Of a stretch of 64,000 nt of DNA, positions 34,450 through 40,248 are shown in pieces. Under the pieces are notes generated by a model, which did no database searches, was not told where the DNA came from, and saw nothing but the letters and a program-made list of their open reading frames with translations. This DNA comes from Paracidovorax citrulli (lineage in GTDB: Bacteria; Pseudomonadota; Gammaproteobacteria; Burkholderiales; Burkholderiaceae_C), in contig NZ_FNEY01000011.1 in NCBI RefSeq assembly GCF_900100305.1, positions 28,041-92,040 of the forward strand. The letters are read 5' to 3'. Numbering within the stretch: the stretch's first letter is position 1; every line of letters begins with the position of its first letter. Made by a program: the position numbers and the translations under genes.

Positions 34450-36846
34450 TCAGATGCTCCACCACGCGGGCAGCAGCCGCCGCACCTGCGCGCGCGCGAA
34501 GCGGTCGTCGATGAGGTGCACCACGCCCTCGTCCTCCGGCGTGCGGATCACCCGGCCCGCGGCCTGCACGACCTTCTGCAGGCCCGGGTAGAGATAGGCG
34601 TAGTCGTAGCCCGCCCCGAAGAGCCGGTCCATGCGTTCGCGCACCTGCTCGTTCACCGGGTTCACCTGCGGCAGCCCCAGGGTGGAGAGGAAGGCCCCGA
34701 TCAGCCGGCGGCCGGGCAGGTCGATGCCCTCGGCGAAGGCGCCGCCCAGCACCGCGAAGCCGATGCCCTCGCCATCCTCGGTGAAACGCTCCAGGAACGC
34801 GCGCTGCCCGGCCTCCTGCATGCGGCGCGACTGGCACCAGTGCGGCACGCCGGGATGGCGCTGCGCGAACACCTGCGCCACCTGCTGCAGGTAGTCGTAG
34901 CTGCTGAAGAAGGCCAGGTAGTTGCCGGGCCGCTCCGCGAACTGCCGCGCCATGAGGTCGGCGATGGGCTGCACCGAGGCCGCGCGGTGGGCATAGCGCG
35001 TGGAGATGTGGCGCGCGACGTGCACCTGCAGCTGCGCCGCACGGAAGGGCGAGGCCACGTCGGCGCGGGCGTGGTCCTGCGGCAGGCCCAGCAGGTCGGC
35101 GTAGTAGTCCATGGGCTGCAGCGTGGCGGAAAACAGCGTGCCCGACTGCGCGGCCTGCAGGCGCGGCCCCAGGAACGGCGCGGGCACCAGGTTGCGCACG
35201 CAGACCACGGAACCGACGGGGGCCGCGCCCTGCGCGGGGCGGCTCACGTCCACGATGGAATGCGCGTCCAGCAGTTCGGCCATGCGCAGCAGCTGCAGCA
35301 CTTCCAGGTGGAAGGTCTGCAGCGCGGCGTCCATCTGCTCCGGATGCTCGGCGAAGTGCTCGCCCAGCGCGACAGAGCACTGCTGCAGCGCCGCGAGCAG
35401 CTTGCCGGGGAAGGCCTCCAGCACGGCGTAGTCGGCCGGCTGCTCCCTGTCCAGTGCCATCCAGCCGCGCCGCACGCGGTCCAGGGCCTTCTTCACGGCC
35501 GGCACGGTGGCGGCGGTGGCCGAGCGGCGGGCCTGCAAGAGCGATTCCGGCAGCAGTTCCGCGCTGTACATGCGCCGGCCGCGCTCCACAAGGTTGTGCG
35601 CTTCGTCCACCAGCAGGGCCACGCGCCACTGGCCGGCCTGCGCCAGGCCGTGCAGCAGGCCGCCCATGTCGAAGTAGTAGTGGTAATCGCCCACCACCAC
35701 GTCGGCCCAGCGCCCGAGTTCCTGGCCCAGGTAGTAGGGGCACACCCCGTGGCGCAGGGCGGCATCGCGCACGCGGGCCTGGTCCAGCGGTGCCGGCGCC
35801 CCGCACGCCGGCGGGCGCAGCGCATCGGCCCGCGCGGCCGGCAGCCGGTCGTAGAAGCCGCGCGCGAGCGGGCAGGCGTCGCCGTGGCAGGCGCTGCCCG
35901 GGTATTCGCAGGACTTCTCGCGCGCCACCAGTTCCAGCACGCGCAGGGGCAGGGTCAGGGGCGCCGCAGGGGCCTGGTGCGACTCCTGCGGTGCCGCGAC
36001 GATGCGGGCGAGCGCATCCAGGGCGACCTGCCGCCCGGAGGTCTTGGCCGCGAGGAAGAAGACCTTGTCGATGCCCGCGCCCGGCGCGGCCTTGAGCAGC
36101 GGGAACAGCGTGCCCACCGTCTTGCCGATGCCCGTGGGCGCCTGCGCGAGCAGGCAGCGGCCGGCGGCGGCGGCCCGGTACACGGCTTCGGACAGGGGCC
36201 GCTGGCCTGCGCGGAAGCCCCCTGCGAACGGGAAGGCCAGGGTGCGCAACGCGGCGTCGCGCGCCGCGCGGTGGGCCACCTCCTGCGCGGCCCAGTCCAC
36301 GAAGCGGCCGCACAGCGCCTCGAAATGCGCTCGCAGCGCCTGCGCCGTCCAGTCTTCGGACAGCACGGTTTCCTTCTGCGTGCCGATGTCCAGGTACACC
36401 AGAGAGACAGTGAGCCCCGGCAGGCCGCGCGAGGCGCACAGCAGCCAGCCGTACACCCGGGCCTGTGCCCAGTGCAGCGCGCGGTGGGCGGCCGGCTGGC
36501 GGTCGAGCCGGCCCTTGAAGGTCTTGACCTCGTCCACGCGACCCGCCACGGCGTCGAATCCGTCGGCGCGGCCGCGCACGCGCAGCAGGCCGCACACGCC
36601 TTCCAGCGGCACCTCGGCCTCGTAGCCGGGGGACCCGGCCGCCCGCCGGGCCGCCACCGCGGCATGGCCCGCCATGCCCTCCCGCGCCGTGGGCGCCGGC
36701 GTGAAGCGCAGATCGAGGTCGCCCTGCTTGGCGGTGAACTCGCACAGCTCGCGCACGGCGATGGTGTAGCCCCACGGTTGCGCGCGGTCCGCGCCGGACG
36801 CTCCGGGGTCCGCGGGCTCCGTGGCCGGTTCCGTTGCCGTCTGCAT
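34450..36846 (-). CDS. DinG/XPD-type helicase with N-terminal Cas4-like nuclease domain
   Basis: This 798-residue protein has three parts. Residues 1-200 hold a PD-(D/E)XK nuclease-like segment with RADGFD then DEVKTFKG near 95-110, as in Cas4/RecB-type nucleases. A superfamily 2 helicase follows, with Walker A APTGIGKT (Lys242) and DEAH at 414-417 (LLVDEAHNLVERGR). The XPD-like iron-sulfur cluster cysteines appear as CEYPGSACHGDAC and later singles. The C-terminal helicase half contains GGAFAEGIDLPGRRLIG and a terminal VIRTPEDEG. It is preceded by a nuclease gene 11 bases upstream, sharing the LexA-box promoter. It resembles E. coli DinG plus an extra nuclease domain. Confidence 0.85.
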   Translation of the reverse strand: MQTATEPATEPADPGASGADRAQPWGYTIAVRELCEFTAKQGDLDLRFTPAPTAREGMAGHAAVAARRAAGSPGYEAEVPLEGVCGLLRVRGRADGFDAVAGRVDEVKTFKGRLDRQPAAHRALHWAQARVYGWLLCASRGLPGLTVSLVYLDIGTQKETVLSEDWTAQALRAHFEALCGRFVDWAAQEVAHRAARDAALRTLAFPFAGGFRAGQRPLSEAVYRAAAAGRCLLAQAPTGIGKTVGTLFPLLKAAPGAGIDKVFFLAAKTSGRQVALDALARIVAAPQESHQAPAAPLTLPLRVLELVAREKSCEYPGSACHGDACPLARGFYDRLPAARADALRPPACGAPAPLDQARVRDAALRHGVCPYYLGQELGRWADVVVGDYHYYFDMGGLLHGLAQAGQWRVALLVDEAHNLVERGRRMYSAELLPESLLQARRSATAATVPAVKKALDRVRRGWMALDREQPADYAVLEAFPGKLLAALQQCSVALGEHFAEHPEQMDAALQTFHLEVLQLLRMAELLDAHSIVDVSRPAQGAAPVGSVVCVRNLVPAPFLGPRLQAAQSGTLFSATLQPMDYYADLLGLPQDHARADVASPFRAAQLQVHVARHISTRYAHRAASVQPIADLMARQFAERPGNYLAFFSSYDYLQQVAQVFAQRHPGVPHWCQSRRMQEAGQRAFLERFTEDGEGIGFAVLGGAFAEGIDLPGRRLIGAFLSTLGLPQVNPVNEQVRERMDRLFGAGYDYAYLYPGLQKVVQAAGRVIRTPEDEGVVHLIDDRFARAQVRRLLPAWWSI

Positions 36847-36857
36847 GGGCTGGCGCG

Positions 36858-37766
36858 TCAGGGAGCGGCGGAGGGCGCCGGCGCAGCGGCCTCTGCCCGC
36901 ACATCGGCAGGCATACCGGAGGCCGGCGCCCCGCCCTCCTCGCCCAGCAGCGCCTGGGCAGGCTCGCCTTCGCTGTGCAGGGGCGTGGCGCGGCACAGCG
37001 CCATCCAGACGGCGAAGGGCAGCGGGCAGCGGGCGTGGCGCGCGGGGCGCAGCAGCTCGAAGCGGCCCGATTCGATCGCTCCGTGCAGCACCCACACGCC
37101 GAAGGGTTCGGGAATCTCCTCTGGCTCGGCGATGCCCGCCGGGAAGACGTAGTAGCACTCCTCGCACAGCCACTGGTAGGCCTCGCGCTTGGCCGCATGC
37201 CGCAGGTCGGAGAGCAGGTCGGCGCGGCTCGCCTTCACCTCGTGCACCATGGGCTGCAGGTAGGCGGGCACGCTGGTATGGCGGATCGAGAACAGGTCGG
37301 GCCGGGCCATGCGCCACACCCGCGCCACCGCGGGCGGCGGCAGGCAGGCGCCGTCCTGGGCCTCCTCCCCGTCCCACAGGCCGGCCGGGGCGCCGCGACC
37401 GGGCGCCGCTGGAGACAGCGGCGGCAGCGGCGCGGGAGACGGCTGCGGAAGGGCTTCCACGGCGGCGCGCAGCGACAGCTCGCGCCAGACGATGCGGCCC
37501 GCCGAGAGCAATTGCTCCGCGAAGCGCATCGCCAGCCGGTCGTGGGCGCTCAGGGCGCGCGCGCTGCGCTGCCGCGCCTGCGCCAGGCAGGCGATGCCTG
37601 CGTCGGTCAGGCGGAGCACCTCGTGCCCGCCCGGCTCCGGCACCAGGCGCAGCATGCCGGCGGCGAGCAGGTCGATCTCGACCGTATCGCGGCAAGGCCA
37701 GCCCGCGGACCGCCAGATCTGCAGCAGGCGGGTGCGATGGATGCGTTGGAGGGCGATGTCCGGCAT
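36858..37766 (-). CDS. PD-(D/E)XK nuclease domain protein, MmcB-like
   Basis: This 302-residue protein has an N-terminal winged-helix-like part (RTRLLQIWRSAGW), a Pro/Ala-rich linker, and a nuclease core: RPDLFSIRHTS followed by MVHEVKASRADLLSDL near residues 155-185, a PD-(D/E)XK pattern with the D and ExK present. The C-terminal region contains ECYYVFPAGI. It resembles MmcB-type DNA repair nucleases. I chose the ATG at 37766; the frame upstream runs through the SOS box. It is the first gene of a two-gene operon with the helicase. Confidence 0.72.
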   Translation of the reverse strand: MPDIALQRIHRTRLLQIWRSAGWPCRDTVEIDLLAAGMLRLVPEPGGHEVLRLTDAGIACLAQARQRSARALSAHDRLAMRFAEQLLSAGRIVWRELSLRAAVEALPQPSPAPLPPLSPAAPGRGAPAGLWDGEEAQDGACLPPPAVARVWRMARPDLFSIRHTSVPAYLQPMVHEVKASRADLLSDLRHAAKREAYQWLCEECYYVFPAGIAEPEEIPEPFGVWVLHGAIESGRFELLRPARHARCPLPFAVWMALCRATPLHSEGEPAQALLGEEGGAPASGMPADVRAEAAAPAPSAAP

Positions 37767-37779
37767 GGCGCGATTGGAA

Positions 37780-37799
37780 CACTGATTGTAAATACAGTG
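37780..37799. promoter_or_regulatory. LexA-type SOS box
   Basis: CACTGATTGTAAATACAGTG is a 20-bp near-palindrome with CTG-N10-CAG spacing and one mismatch to CTGT-N8-ACAG. It lies 14 bases before the nuclease start codon, overlapping the likely promoter. DinG of E. coli is SOS-regulated, so LexA control of this operon is a sensible inference. Confidence 0.75.
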
Positions 37800-37907: not shown

Positions 37908-39218
37908 ATGCCCCAGCTACCCGCAACCACGCACCTTCGCTTCCGCCCGTATCGCCCCCTTCGCCCGCTCCGGCTCCTGGCCTGCGCCACGTCCGCGCTG
38001 TGGCACATCGCCACGGGCACGGCGCATGCCCAGGCCGCGGATGCACCGCCCGCCGCGCTGCCGGCTCCCGCCTCCGCGCCGGCCTGGGTGCAGCCGCTGG
38101 AGCGCGCGCTGGCGCGGGCGGAGGCGGACAGCGGCGTGCGCATCGGCGTCCATGTACGCGATCTGGAGACGGGCGCCTCCGCATCGCTGCATGGCACGGA
38201 GCCGTGGTACCTGGCCTCGTCCATCAAGGTGCCGGTGGCGATCGCGGTGCTGCGCGGGGCGGAGCGCGGCGACTTCACGCTGGACACGCCCCTCACCCTG
38301 CGCGCCGCCGACTACGTGGACGGCGCGGGCCCCACCAACGGACGCCCCGTGGGCACGCCCCTCACCGTGCGCTACCTGCTGGAGCAGATGATCATCTACA
38401 GCGACAACACCGCCAGCGACATGCTCATCGGCCTGGTCGGCATCGGCACGGTGAACGCGGTGGTGCAGTCGCTGGTGCCCCGGGGCTTCGGGCGCATCAC
38501 CACGCTGGCCGACGTGCGCCGCCACGTGTACGGCGTGCTCACGCCCGCGGCATCGCACCTGTCCGGCACCGACTTCCTGGCGCTGCGGCAGCAGCAGCGG
38601 CTGCATGGCGACGCCGCGGCACGGTCCGCGCTGGCGACGCTGCTGCGCGTGCCCGAGCGCTCCCTCGCGCCCGCCGACCTGGCTTCCGCCTACGAGAGCT
38701 ACTACGCCACGGGCCTCAACAGCGGCCGGCTCGACGCCTACGCCGACCTGCTGCAGGCACTCGTCGAGGGCCGCGCGCTCGATGCCCGGCACACGGCCTA
38801 CCTGCTGTCCGTGATGGAGCGCGTGAAAACCGGCCCCCAGCGCATCAAGGCGGGACTACCGCCGGGTGCGCGCTTCGCCCACAAGACCGGCACGCAGCGC
38901 GCACGAACATGCGATTCAGGCTTGGTCACCGTGCCGCGCGCCCTTCCGGAGCGGCGGGTGCTGGTGGTGGCCTGCACGCGCGGCGAACCTTCCACGGCCC
39001 GGTCCGATCGCGCGCTCCGGCAGGTGGGCATCGCCCTTTGCCAGTCGGGCCTGCTGTCCGACGGGAGATCGCATGAACCACGCTGCCCCACCCTGCCCCC
39101 CCGGGCTTCCGGCGCCACGGCCGCGCCCGCAGGCGGCGAGGCGCCGGCGGCTCGCCCGCACGGTGCTGGCGGCGGTGCTGCCCCTGCTGCTGGCGGCGCT
39201 GGGGACGACGACGCCTGA
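37908..39218 (+). CDS. Class A beta-lactamase-fold serine hydrolase (first of a tandem pair)
   Basis: This is a 436-residue protein with a signal peptide (cleavage near AHAQA). Penicillin-recognising motifs: nucleophile Ser104-x-x-Lys107 (ASSIK), Ser165-Asp-Asn (YSDN), and HKTG near 327. The ExxLN omega loop with the deacylating Glu of true class A enzymes is not evident; Tyr appears in its place by my rough alignment, so it may be a PBP-like carboxypeptidase or altered hydrolase. The last 48 residues overlap the next gene in another frame and look non-homologous, so a late frameshift is possible. An upstream start at ATG 37908 fits the signal peptide. Confidence 0.85.
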   Translation: MPQLPATTHLRFRPYRPLRPLRLLACATSALWHIATGTAHAQAADAPPAALPAPASAPAWVQPLERALARAEADSGVRIGVHVRDLETGASASLHGTEPWYLASSIKVPVAIAVLRGAERGDFTLDTPLTLRAADYVDGAGPTNGRPVGTPLTVRYLLEQMIIYSDNTASDMLIGLVGIGTVNAVVQSLVPRGFGRITTLADVRRHVYGVLTPAASHLSGTDFLALRQQQRLHGDAAARSALATLLRVPERSLAPADLASAYESYYATGLNSGRLDAYADLLQALVEGRALDARHTAYLLSVMERVKTGPQRIKAGLPPGARFAHKTGTQRARTCDSGLVTVPRALPERRVLVVACTRGEPSTARSDRALRQVGIALCQSGLLSDGRSHEPRCPTLPPRASGATAAPAGGEAPAARPHGAGGGAAPAAGGAGDDDA

Positions 39219-40248
39219 GCGGGCGCTGGCCGCGCCCGCATGGGCCGAGGCCCTGAGGAGCCAGGTGGAGAAGCTCGAACGCGAAACGCCCGGCCAGTTC
39301 GGCCTGTACGTGAAACGCCTGGACAACGGCGAGACCTTCGCGTGGCAGGCGGACCGGCGCTGGTACCTGGCATCGTCCGCGAAGCTGCCCCTGGCCATCG
39401 CGGTGCTGCAGGAGGTGCAGCAGGGCCGCCTGCGCCTGGACCAGGAACTGCGCGTGGAAGAGCGCGACAAGATCGACGGCTCGGGTGCGCTGGTCTGGCA
39501 GCCCGTGGGCACGCAGCACAGCGTGGAGACGCTGCTGCGCCGCATGCTGATGGACAGCGACAACACCGCGGCGAACCTGCTGATCCGCACCATCGGGCCG
39601 GACACGTTCAATACACGCGCCCGGGCGCTGATGGGCGCGCGCAACGTGGGGCCGCTCACCAACTTCACCCAGGTGCGCCAGGATGTGTACGCGGAGCTGC
39701 ATCCCCGCGCGCGAGAGATCGCGCCGATGGAACTGGTGCGCGTGGCCGCGGCCCCCATGGGCTCGCAGCGCGTGCAGGCTTTGGCCCGCACGCTGCAGGT
39801 CCAGAAGGATGACCTGAAGGTGAAGACGATGGAAGAGGCCTACGACCGCTACTACGCGTGGGGCACCAACACCGCCACCCTGGCGGGCTACGGCGGCATG
39901 CTGGAAAAGCTGGTGCGCGGCCAGTTGCTGACGCCGCCGCACCAGCAGATGCTCTACAAGGACCTGAAGTTCGACACCTATGACGCCTACCGGCTGGAAG
40001 CCGGGCTGCCGCGCACCGTGCGCTTCATCCACAAGACCGGCACGCAGTACCACCGCGCCTGCCACATGGGTGTGATCGATCCGCAGGACGGGGGCGCGCA
40101 GGCGATCGTAGTGGCTACCTGCGCCGAGGACATGGACGAGATGCGCCAGGCGGGCCGCCTGTTCGAGCAGCTCGGGCGCGCGATCACCCGCACGCTGCTG
40201 AAGGACCGCCCGGCCACCGGTCCGGGCGCGGCGCAGGCCAGCGGCTGA
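39073..40248 (+). CDS. Class A beta-lactamase-fold serine hydrolase (second of a tandem pair)
   Basis: This 391-residue paralogue of the preceding protein has a signal peptide (LARTVLAAVLPLLLAAL, cleavage near ALAAP). Motifs: Ser101-x-x-Lys104 (SSAK), SDN in MDSDNTAANLL, and HKTGTQ near 320. The omega-loop Glu is again not apparent (YAELHP stands where EPELN is expected). The start is ATG 39073, 146 bases inside the end of the first gene. The tandem arrangement suggests duplication. True beta-lactamase activity is not assured. Confidence 0.85.
   Translation: MNHAAPPCPPGLPAPRPRPQAARRRRLARTVLAAVLPLLLAALGTTTPERALAAPAWAEALRSQVEKLERETPGQFGLYVKRLDNGETFAWQADRRWYLASSAKLPLAIAVLQEVQQGRLRLDQELRVEERDKIDGSGALVWQPVGTQHSVETLLRRMLMDSDNTAANLLIRTIGPDTFNTRARALMGARNVGPLTNFTQVRQDVYAELHPRAREIAPMELVRVAAAPMGSQRVQALARTLQVQKDDLKVKTMEEAYDRYYAWGTNTATLAGYGGMLEKLVRGQLLTPPHQQMLYKDLKFDTYDAYRLEAGLPRTVRFIHKTGTQYHRACHMGVIDPQDGGAQAIVVATCAEDMDEMRQAGRLFEQLGRAITRTLLKDRPATGPGAAQASG

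What the first reader, a model, noticed from the sequence alone, without database searches (positions are those of the whole stretch)
34450..37799. SOS-box-controlled nuclease plus nuclease-helicase operon
A LexA-like box precedes a PD-(D/E)XK nuclease and a DinG-type helicase that itself carries a Cas4-like nuclease domain. Two different nuclease folds with one iron-sulfur helicase under damage control could be an undescribed DNA repair or anti-mobile-element system.
Basis: inference. Interest (0 to 1): 0.75.

Follow-up and report, generated by a model that had tools for sequence, protein, structure and literature searches.

The report
SOS-controlled FAN1-substitute nuclease and helicase operon
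Behind a likely DNA-damage switch, this bacterium carries paired genes for a DNA-cutting enzyme and a DNA-unwinding enzyme; some relatives carry the same unwinding enzyme beside FAN1, the counterpart of a human crosslink-repair enzyme, so the pair is most likely a damage-induced repair machine in which one cutting enzyme has replaced another.

Summary
On the minus strand a LexA-like box (37797-37782) precedes nuc (37766-36858, 302 aa) and, 11 nt later, hel (36846-34450, 798 aa). Alone the box is no better than chance, but 62 of 78 relatives with upstream sequence have one there, against 22 of 3756 random windows; the motif also precedes this genome's lexA. Hel meets the sequence features tested for the EndoDinG subgroup described in 2025. 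Nuc matches no Pfam, NCBIfam or PADLOC model at E up to 1; its predicted fold is a MarR-like winged helix plus an MmcB-like PD-(D/E)XK nuclease. Main new result: hel goes with either nuc or FAN1. In 250 genomes of the order, 26 have hel, 6 nuc, 15 FAN1; all 21 nuclease carriers have hel, none has both. In 100 family genomes the three hel carriers without nuc have FAN1 beside hel. Best reading: an SOS repair unit for crosslinks or blocked forks in which nuc stands in for FAN1. Regulation and swap are inferred from sequence, crosslink function by association. Defence against mobile elements has little support.

The parts
37782..37797 (-). LexA-like box CTGTATTTACAATCAG, 16-31 nt upstream of the nuc start codon
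   Evidence: same motif upstream of this genome's lexA
37785..37790 (-). TACAAT, possible -10 hexamer inside the box (inference; -35 matches were no better than shuffled control)
   Evidence: 37 of 64 boxes carry TATAAT, TACAAT or TAAAAT at this place
36858..37766 (-). nuc: 302-aa winged-helix plus MmcB-like PD-(D/E)XK nuclease, stop codon included
   Evidence: dN/dS 0.16-0.29 in four pairs
37551..37760 (-). nuc residues 3-72, MarR-like winged-helix domain
36936..37559 (-). nuc residues 70-277, MmcB-like nuclease domain (low-confidence stretch 122-139 inside)
37233..37301 (-). nuc catalytic stretch, P156-D157 ... H175-E176-x-K178
   Evidence: invariant in 78 of 78 sequences
34450..36846 (-). 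hel: 798-aa EndoDinG-type nuclease-helicase, stop codon included; starts 11 nt after the nuc stop
36247..36762 (-). hel N-terminal PD-(D/E)XK domain, about residues 29-200 (H61, E78, D95, E106, K108, Q128, Y132)
   Evidence: aligned with solved chain 9kqh_A
35740..35910 (-). hel Fe-S cysteines C313, C320, C325, C369
   Evidence: in 58, 55, 58 and 59 of 59 rows
34456..34941 (-). hel C-terminal helicase motor, Helicase_C_2
   Evidence: Pfam PF13307, E 7.7e-38

Best explanation
An SOS-inducible two-gene repair unit. LexA bound to the box, which probably overlaps the promoter -10, keeps the operon low; after damage both proteins are made together. Hel loads on single-stranded DNA next to a blocked fork or crosslink, moves 5' to 3' and opens the duplex with its XPD-type Fe-S motor, and can cut with its own N-terminal nuclease. 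Nuc binds duplex DNA through its winged helix and makes the partner incision near the lesion, the task that FAN1 performs in relatives, so that interstrand crosslinks or similar blocks are unhooked. Supported here by sequence: the operon, the conserved box, intact active-site residues, the predicted folds, and the use of either nuc or FAN1. Inferred: LexA binding, polarity, incision, crosslink substrate.
For: LexA-like box: 62 of 78 loci, background 22 of 3756 windows; same motif at lexA. Hel directly downstream of nuc in 68 of 78 loci with room, at least one of them only a remnant of hel (L108). Hel motor, Fe-S and nuclease residues conserved. Nuc PD...ExK invariant in 78 of 78, MmcB-like fold. 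Order: hel in 26, nuc in 6, FAN1 in 15 of 250; both nucleases together 0, nuclease without hel 0. Family: the 3 hel carriers lacking nuc are the 3 with FAN1 beside hel; nuc-hel co-occurrence holds among the 78 genomes of 3.0 Mb or more (Fisher 8e-9). Seven of seven class-level hel carriers outside the family have a FAN1 match (own three-protein profile) upstream of hel. FAN1-hel operons have a box in 12 of 24 (no control of its own). Bacterial FAN1 (PA1865) is credited with crosslink unhooking and MmcB with mitomycin C protection (PMC12796719, PMC9578287, passages). dN/dS 0.16-0.30 for both genes in four pairs.
Against: No expression, binding or enzyme data. Of 42 family genomes with both genes 20 have them adjacent, 18 in tandem (coordinates); 13 of 100 have nuc without hel, one of them (G037) by a doubtful short match. 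Where the genes are apart a box is uncommon: 7 of 33 hel loci in the script's window, up to 10 if three boxes just inside the extrapolated start count, and 1 of 10 nuc-only loci examined of 13. Twelve of 24 FAN1-hel operons show no box. Five of 26 hel carriers in the order have neither nuclease. Relatives are not independent: starred branches force at least 4 changes of the nuc label and 1 of the FAN1 label. FAN1 of P. aeruginosa is reported as outside the LexA regulon (PMC12796719, passage).
Confidence: 0.6

Rival explanations
1. General SOS repair of stalled forks, R-loops or flaps: hel and nuc act on branched DNA without a special role in crosslinks, and FAN1 and nuc share only flap cutting.
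For: DinG and YoaA are SOS helicases acting at forks and R-loops (PMC11981726, passages); no test here singles out crosslinks.
Against: Both alternative partners, FAN1 and the MmcB fold, are linked in print to crosslinking agents.
Confidence: 0.22
2. Anti-phage or anti-plasmid defence: SOS-induced destruction of invading DNA.
For: A PADLOC type IV DinG model matches hel with 393 bits; presence is patchy, hel in 45 and nuc in 55 of 100 family genomes.
Against: Type IV Csf4 cut-off not met, 17.3 against 400 bits; no repeat array of more than two copies at 26-48 kb; partner is FAN1 elsewhere; nuc has no phage match and one distant plasmid match.
Confidence: 0.07
3. Nuc is a winged-helix regulator with a dead nuclease domain that controls hel.
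For: MarR-like N-terminal fold; operator and probable promoter lie just upstream.
Against: PD...ExK invariant in 78 of 78; the slot is filled by FAN1 nuclease elsewhere; nuc is found without hel in 13 of 100 genomes, one doubtful.
Confidence: 0.05
4. The pattern is lineage and genome-size history, not function: both genes belong to larger Burkholderiales genomes and the swap is one or two transfers.
For: Of 22 family genomes under 3.0 Mb 2 have hel and 4 nuc; the FAN1-linked hel of four family-f1 genomes group with two of family f174 on a starred branch, as one transfer would.
Against: Co-occurrence remains in the 78 larger genomes; adjacency, shared box, and 0 of 250 genomes with both nucleases.
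Confidence: 0.1

Closest known systems
EndoDinG subgroup of DinG-like helicases (Bdellovibrio example, PMC11981726; solved relative 9kqh)
   Same: Same domain order, PD-(D/E)XK residues and four-cysteine Fe-S motor; match to 9kqh_A over residues 29-796, E 5e-98.
   Different: The review's sections 5 and 13 and the passages seen name no operon partner and no LexA control for EndoDinG; its main text holds no 'FAN1' or 'MmcB'.
FAN1 (HTH, SAP, VRR-NUC)
   Same: Occupies the same place before hel, behind a LexA-like box in 12 of 24 loci; also a helix-turn-helix domain followed by a PD-(D/E)XK nuclease (fold class recalled).
   Different: No FAN1 domain match in nuc or its 29-member alignment, no profile similarity; about half as long.
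MmcB (PF06319)
   Same: Predicted nuclease fold like 3dnx, itself matched by an MmcB sequence at E 3e-26; similar ExK region (hhalign P 1.3e-4, probability 54); SOS control in Caulobacter.
   Different: Added winged-helix domain, operon with hel, and no Pfam match for the window protein.
CasDinG / Csf4 of type IV CRISPR
   Same: Related DinG/XPD motor; PADLOC model PDLC01439 matches with 393 bits.
   Different: Csf4 score far below cut-off, no CRISPR-like array nearby, Fe-S cysteines and nuclease residues present.

Membership tests
EndoDinG | Walker A, DEAH and C-terminal helicase motifs | tested here: met
   at least 55 of 59 rows at each residue
EndoDinG | N-terminal PD-(D/E)XK with H, E, D, E and K | tested here: met
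   H61 in 54, E78 58, D95 59, E106 58, K108 58 of 59 rows
EndoDinG | CCCC Fe-S motif | tested here: met
   C313, C320, C325, C369
EndoDinG | shortened Arch domain, no beta7 strand | not tested
   no model of hel was made
EndoDinG | endonuclease and helicase activity | not testable with these tools
   needs protein
MmcB (PF06319) | Pfam score over the family's cut-off | tested here: not met
   no match for the window protein; 1 of 29 alignment members at E 0.013; own genome no match over whole genome
MmcB (PF06319) | fold of the nuclease domain | tested here: met
MmcB (PF06319) | protection from mitomycin C | not testable with these tools
   needs mutants
FAN1 | FAN1_HTH, SAP and VRR_NUC domains | tested here: not met
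   none in nuc or its alignment at E up to 0.5; no VRR_NUC in the own genome
Type IV CRISPR CasDinG | Csf4 model over cut-off and CRISPR locus | tested here: not met
   17.3 against 400 bits; no array at 26-48 kb
SOS regulon | LexA-like box at the promoter, kept in relatives | tested here: met
   62 of 78 loci
SOS regulon | LexA binding and damage induction | not testable with these tools
   needs DNA binding and RNA assays

The most novel reading that the evidence does not exclude
Bacteria have a compact SOS-run counterpart of part of the Fanconi pathway: an Fe-S helicase of the XPD/FANCJ class (class recalled) with its own nuclease works with an exchangeable second nuclease, FAN1 or a winged-helix MmcB-type enzyme, and either one completes the same crosslink-unhooking machine.
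Probability: 0.45. Interest if true: 0.78.

Novelty: new variant of a known kind. Interest (0 to 1): 0.58.

Why it matters
It ties three separately described and poorly placed bacterial proteins (EndoDinG, FAN1, MmcB-type nucleases) to one probably damage-controlled unit, gives an unannotated nuclease family a likely task, and makes the question of how bacteria unhook crosslinks testable by removing or exchanging one gene. It also parallels the eukaryotic use of FAN1 and a DinG/XPD-class helicase (FANCJ, recalled) in crosslink repair.

Tried and rejected
Anti-mobile-element role: looked for a CRISPR-like array, PADLOC models, phage and plasmid copies of nuc and plasmid copies of hel (hel was not searched in phages). 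Only the PADLOC DinG model and a patchy distribution favour it. Of 11 plasmid records with hel, 7 (Burkholderia, Cupriavidus, Caballeronia) are replicons of 1.3-3.5 Mb that look like second chromosomes (inference); the other 4 are Firmicute records at 29-33% identity.

Box by chance: true for the window alone, rejected by relatives. My first box scan did not orient the loci and is superseded. The matrix rests on 6 sites of this genome (7) that I chose from the 10 places (its reversed-pattern control gave 3 and 1 matches against 7 and 7); three sites were left out throughout and one more from then on.

PA1044-PA1045 of P. aeruginosa as a counterpart: PA1045 is called DinG and both are LexA-regulated (PMC12796719, passage), but I had no sequence, so it is not used as evidence. 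PA1865 is FAN1 there; whether PA1866 is an EndoDinG was not tested.

A -35 element: no better than shuffled sequence. A third nuclease in the five 'neither' genomes: the genes read directly before hel in three are a biotin carboxylase, a reductase and a GST-like protein; the other two (L162, L164) were only listed as ORFs.

Literature; no listing showed a paper joining FAN1 or MmcB with EndoDinG. Some listings were cut (20 of 26, 15 of 33, 10 of 29 and 12 of 23 papers), the papers listed were mostly not opened, and subscription papers are mostly not held, so this is weak. Gwon 2014 and Jin 2018 were not held and are known only as cited in PMC12796719. Seen: PMC11981726 abstract, sections 5 and 13 whole, passages elsewhere; PMC12796719 and PMC9578287 passages only.

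Full report
What is there. On the minus strand, 37797 to 34450, lie a LexA-like box, a 302-aa gene (nuc, 37766-36858) and, 11 nt after its stop codon, a 798-aa gene (hel, 36846-34450). The nearest named relatives are Paracidovorax species, so the window is from that group of Burkholderiales (inference). The flanking genes are two Beta-lactamase2-family genes and recQ on one side and a protein without Pfam match on the other.

Hel. Pfam finds DEAD_2 and Helicase_C_2; NCBIfam finds rad3, YoaA and DinG models, all far below their cut-offs. The solved chain 9kqh_A ('DNA 5'-3' helicase') matches residues 29-796 with E 5e-98, so the N-terminal domain is part of a known architecture. A 2025 review defines this as EndoDinG: an N-terminal PD-(D/E)XK domain with H, E, D, E and K, a CCCC Fe-S motif and the DinG motor, with endonuclease activity given as unpublished data (PMC11981726, section 13 read whole). 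I file hel as EndoDinG by sequence.

Control. The box alone could be chance: 14 one-mismatch matches in the window, 16.6 expected. A matrix from 6 strong sites of the own genome, one of them before lexA itself (L004: LexA DNA-binding domain and S24 peptidase), was run on the best 80 loci, of 486 confirmed, from a genome collection. A box of at least 10 bits lies within 150 nt upstream of nuc in 62 of the 78 with upstream sequence; random 160-nt windows of the same loci give 22 of 3756. Among the 66 of these with hel next to nuc, 55 have a box. The loci include near relatives, so they are not 78 independent cases. In 37 of 64 boxes (62 loci, window included) the place reads TATAAT, TACAAT or TAAAAT with a TCAG end, so the box probably overlaps the -10 (inference); no -35 match exceeds the control.

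Partner swap. In 100 family genomes nuc is in 55 at E up to 0.001 (one, G037, is a doubtful short match), hel in 45 at E up to 1e-30, both in 42. The three hel carriers without nuc (G003, G010, G079) are the three with a strong VRR-NUC hit directly before hel (two weak VRR-NUC hits lie elsewhere, in G016 and G027). Those three proteins carry FAN1_HTH, SAP and VRR_NUC and have a box upstream. Of the 42, 20 have the two genes adjacent: 18 in tandem, one divergent, one convergent (my reading of the coordinates); in 22 they lie apart. In 250 genomes of the order hel is in 26 (E up to 1e-40), nuc in 6 (E up to 1e-10; one of them, G528, weaker at 113 bits), FAN1_HTH over cut-off in 15 (3 more hits lie under the cut-off, in genomes without hel). 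All 6 and all 15 are hel carriers, none has both, 5 have neither (Fisher 3.5e-26 for a nuclease with hel, 0.002 for exclusion among hel carriers, both ignoring relatedness). FAN1 lies beside hel in 14 of the 15, nuc in 4 of the 6. In 274 class genomes hel is in 9; besides the own genome and G206 (same family, neither nuclease found), 7 of 7 have FAN1 matches upstream of hel, scored with my own three-protein FAN1 profile, in one (L142) in two frames. Nuc was found in 2 of 274 class genomes, the own and one distant without a hel match, so it is largely a Burkholderiales gene.

Genome size. Of the 22 family genomes under 3.0 Mb, 2 have hel and 4 nuc; in the 78 larger ones nuc and hel still go together (40 both, 3 hel only, 11 nuc only, 24 neither; Fisher 8e-9).

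History. A quick tree of 75 hel rows (window, 17 of the 80 named loci, and the loci that hold hel; rooted by me on four distant class-level rows, all FAN1 partners) needs 12 label changes (shuffled mean 25.4), but starred branches force only 4 for nuc and 1 for FAN1; the FAN1-linked hel of four family-f1 genomes group with two of family f174 on a starred branch. The simplest reading is that FAN1-hel is the older form, nuc took the place in the Comamonadaceae/Sphaerotilaceae line, and a FAN1-hel operon is found in some of that family without nuc. Direction and number of swaps are inferences; the tree is quick, has 24 weak branches of 71 and long outgroup branches.

Results against. Box and operon go together: where hel stands apart from nuc a box is seen in 7 of 33 loci in the script's window (three more, L158, L164 and L216, lie just inside the extrapolated start), and in nuc-only genomes in 1 of 10 examined of 13. 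Of 24 FAN1-hel loci 12 have no box. P. wautersii (L082) keeps nuc but has no hel within the fetched 8 kb, and one Aquabacterium genome (L176, same place as L108) has only an N-terminal piece of hel after nuc. So nuc either works alone too or is decaying there.

Mechanism and likelihood. Shown by sequence: the operon, the conserved box, intact active-site residues in both proteins, purifying selection (dN/dS 0.16-0.30, four pairs), and nuc or FAN1 but not both. Inferred: LexA repression (about 0.85), functional equivalence of nuc and FAN1 (about 0.7), crosslinks as the main substrate (about 0.55). The crosslink inference rests on published roles of FAN1 (PA1865, unhooking; PMC12796719, passage) and MmcB (mitomycin C protection, SOS-regulated; PMC9578287, passage). 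A general fork-repair role is the main rival.

Novelty. EndoDinG, FAN1 and MmcB are known; no listing of the ten searches named under Tried and rejected showed a paper joining them. A SOS-type operon that pairs EndoDinG with exchangeable nucleases, one of them an unannotated winged-helix MmcB-like enzyme, is a new variant of a known kind.

Noticed in passing
window 37570-37655 +: ARAGORN calls a tRNA-Arg (tcg) antisense inside nuc; nuc is conserved there, so most likely a false hit in G+C-rich sequence.
   Followed up: no
window 37908-39218 + and 38866-40248 +: Two neighbouring Beta-lactamase2-family (PF13354) genes whose open frames overlap, beside recQ at 42399-40276.
   Followed up: partly
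L007, L002, L005, L001, L003, L006 (own genome): A box-like site 4 nt before the start of another DEAD_2 helicase frame (L007); two radical SAM genes lie beside boxes (L002, L005); of the other three, the frames scanned for L003 and L006 had no Pfam match and none was scanned for L001.
   Followed up: partly
L082 (Paracidovorax wautersii): nuc kept, hel absent from the fetched 8 kb downstream, although the window's glutamate-dehydrogenase-like neighbour (name recalled) is still nearby.
   Followed up: partly
L176 / L108: Only an N-terminal piece of hel (query residues 21-91) follows nuc, in an open frame of 453 aa: hel decaying or replaced.
   Followed up: no
L215 and L216 (Cupriavidus, Caballeronia large replicons): hel without a FAN1 or nuc match in the 4 kb on either side, with a LexA-like box near its start.
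   Followed up: partly
PDB 9kqh_A alignment: At the place of conserved D95 the solved chain reads Ala, perhaps an engineered catalytic mutant (inference).
   Followed up: no
L054 (G016): nuc and hel are divergent there with a LexA-like box between or at their starts, so one operator could serve both genes.
   Followed up: no
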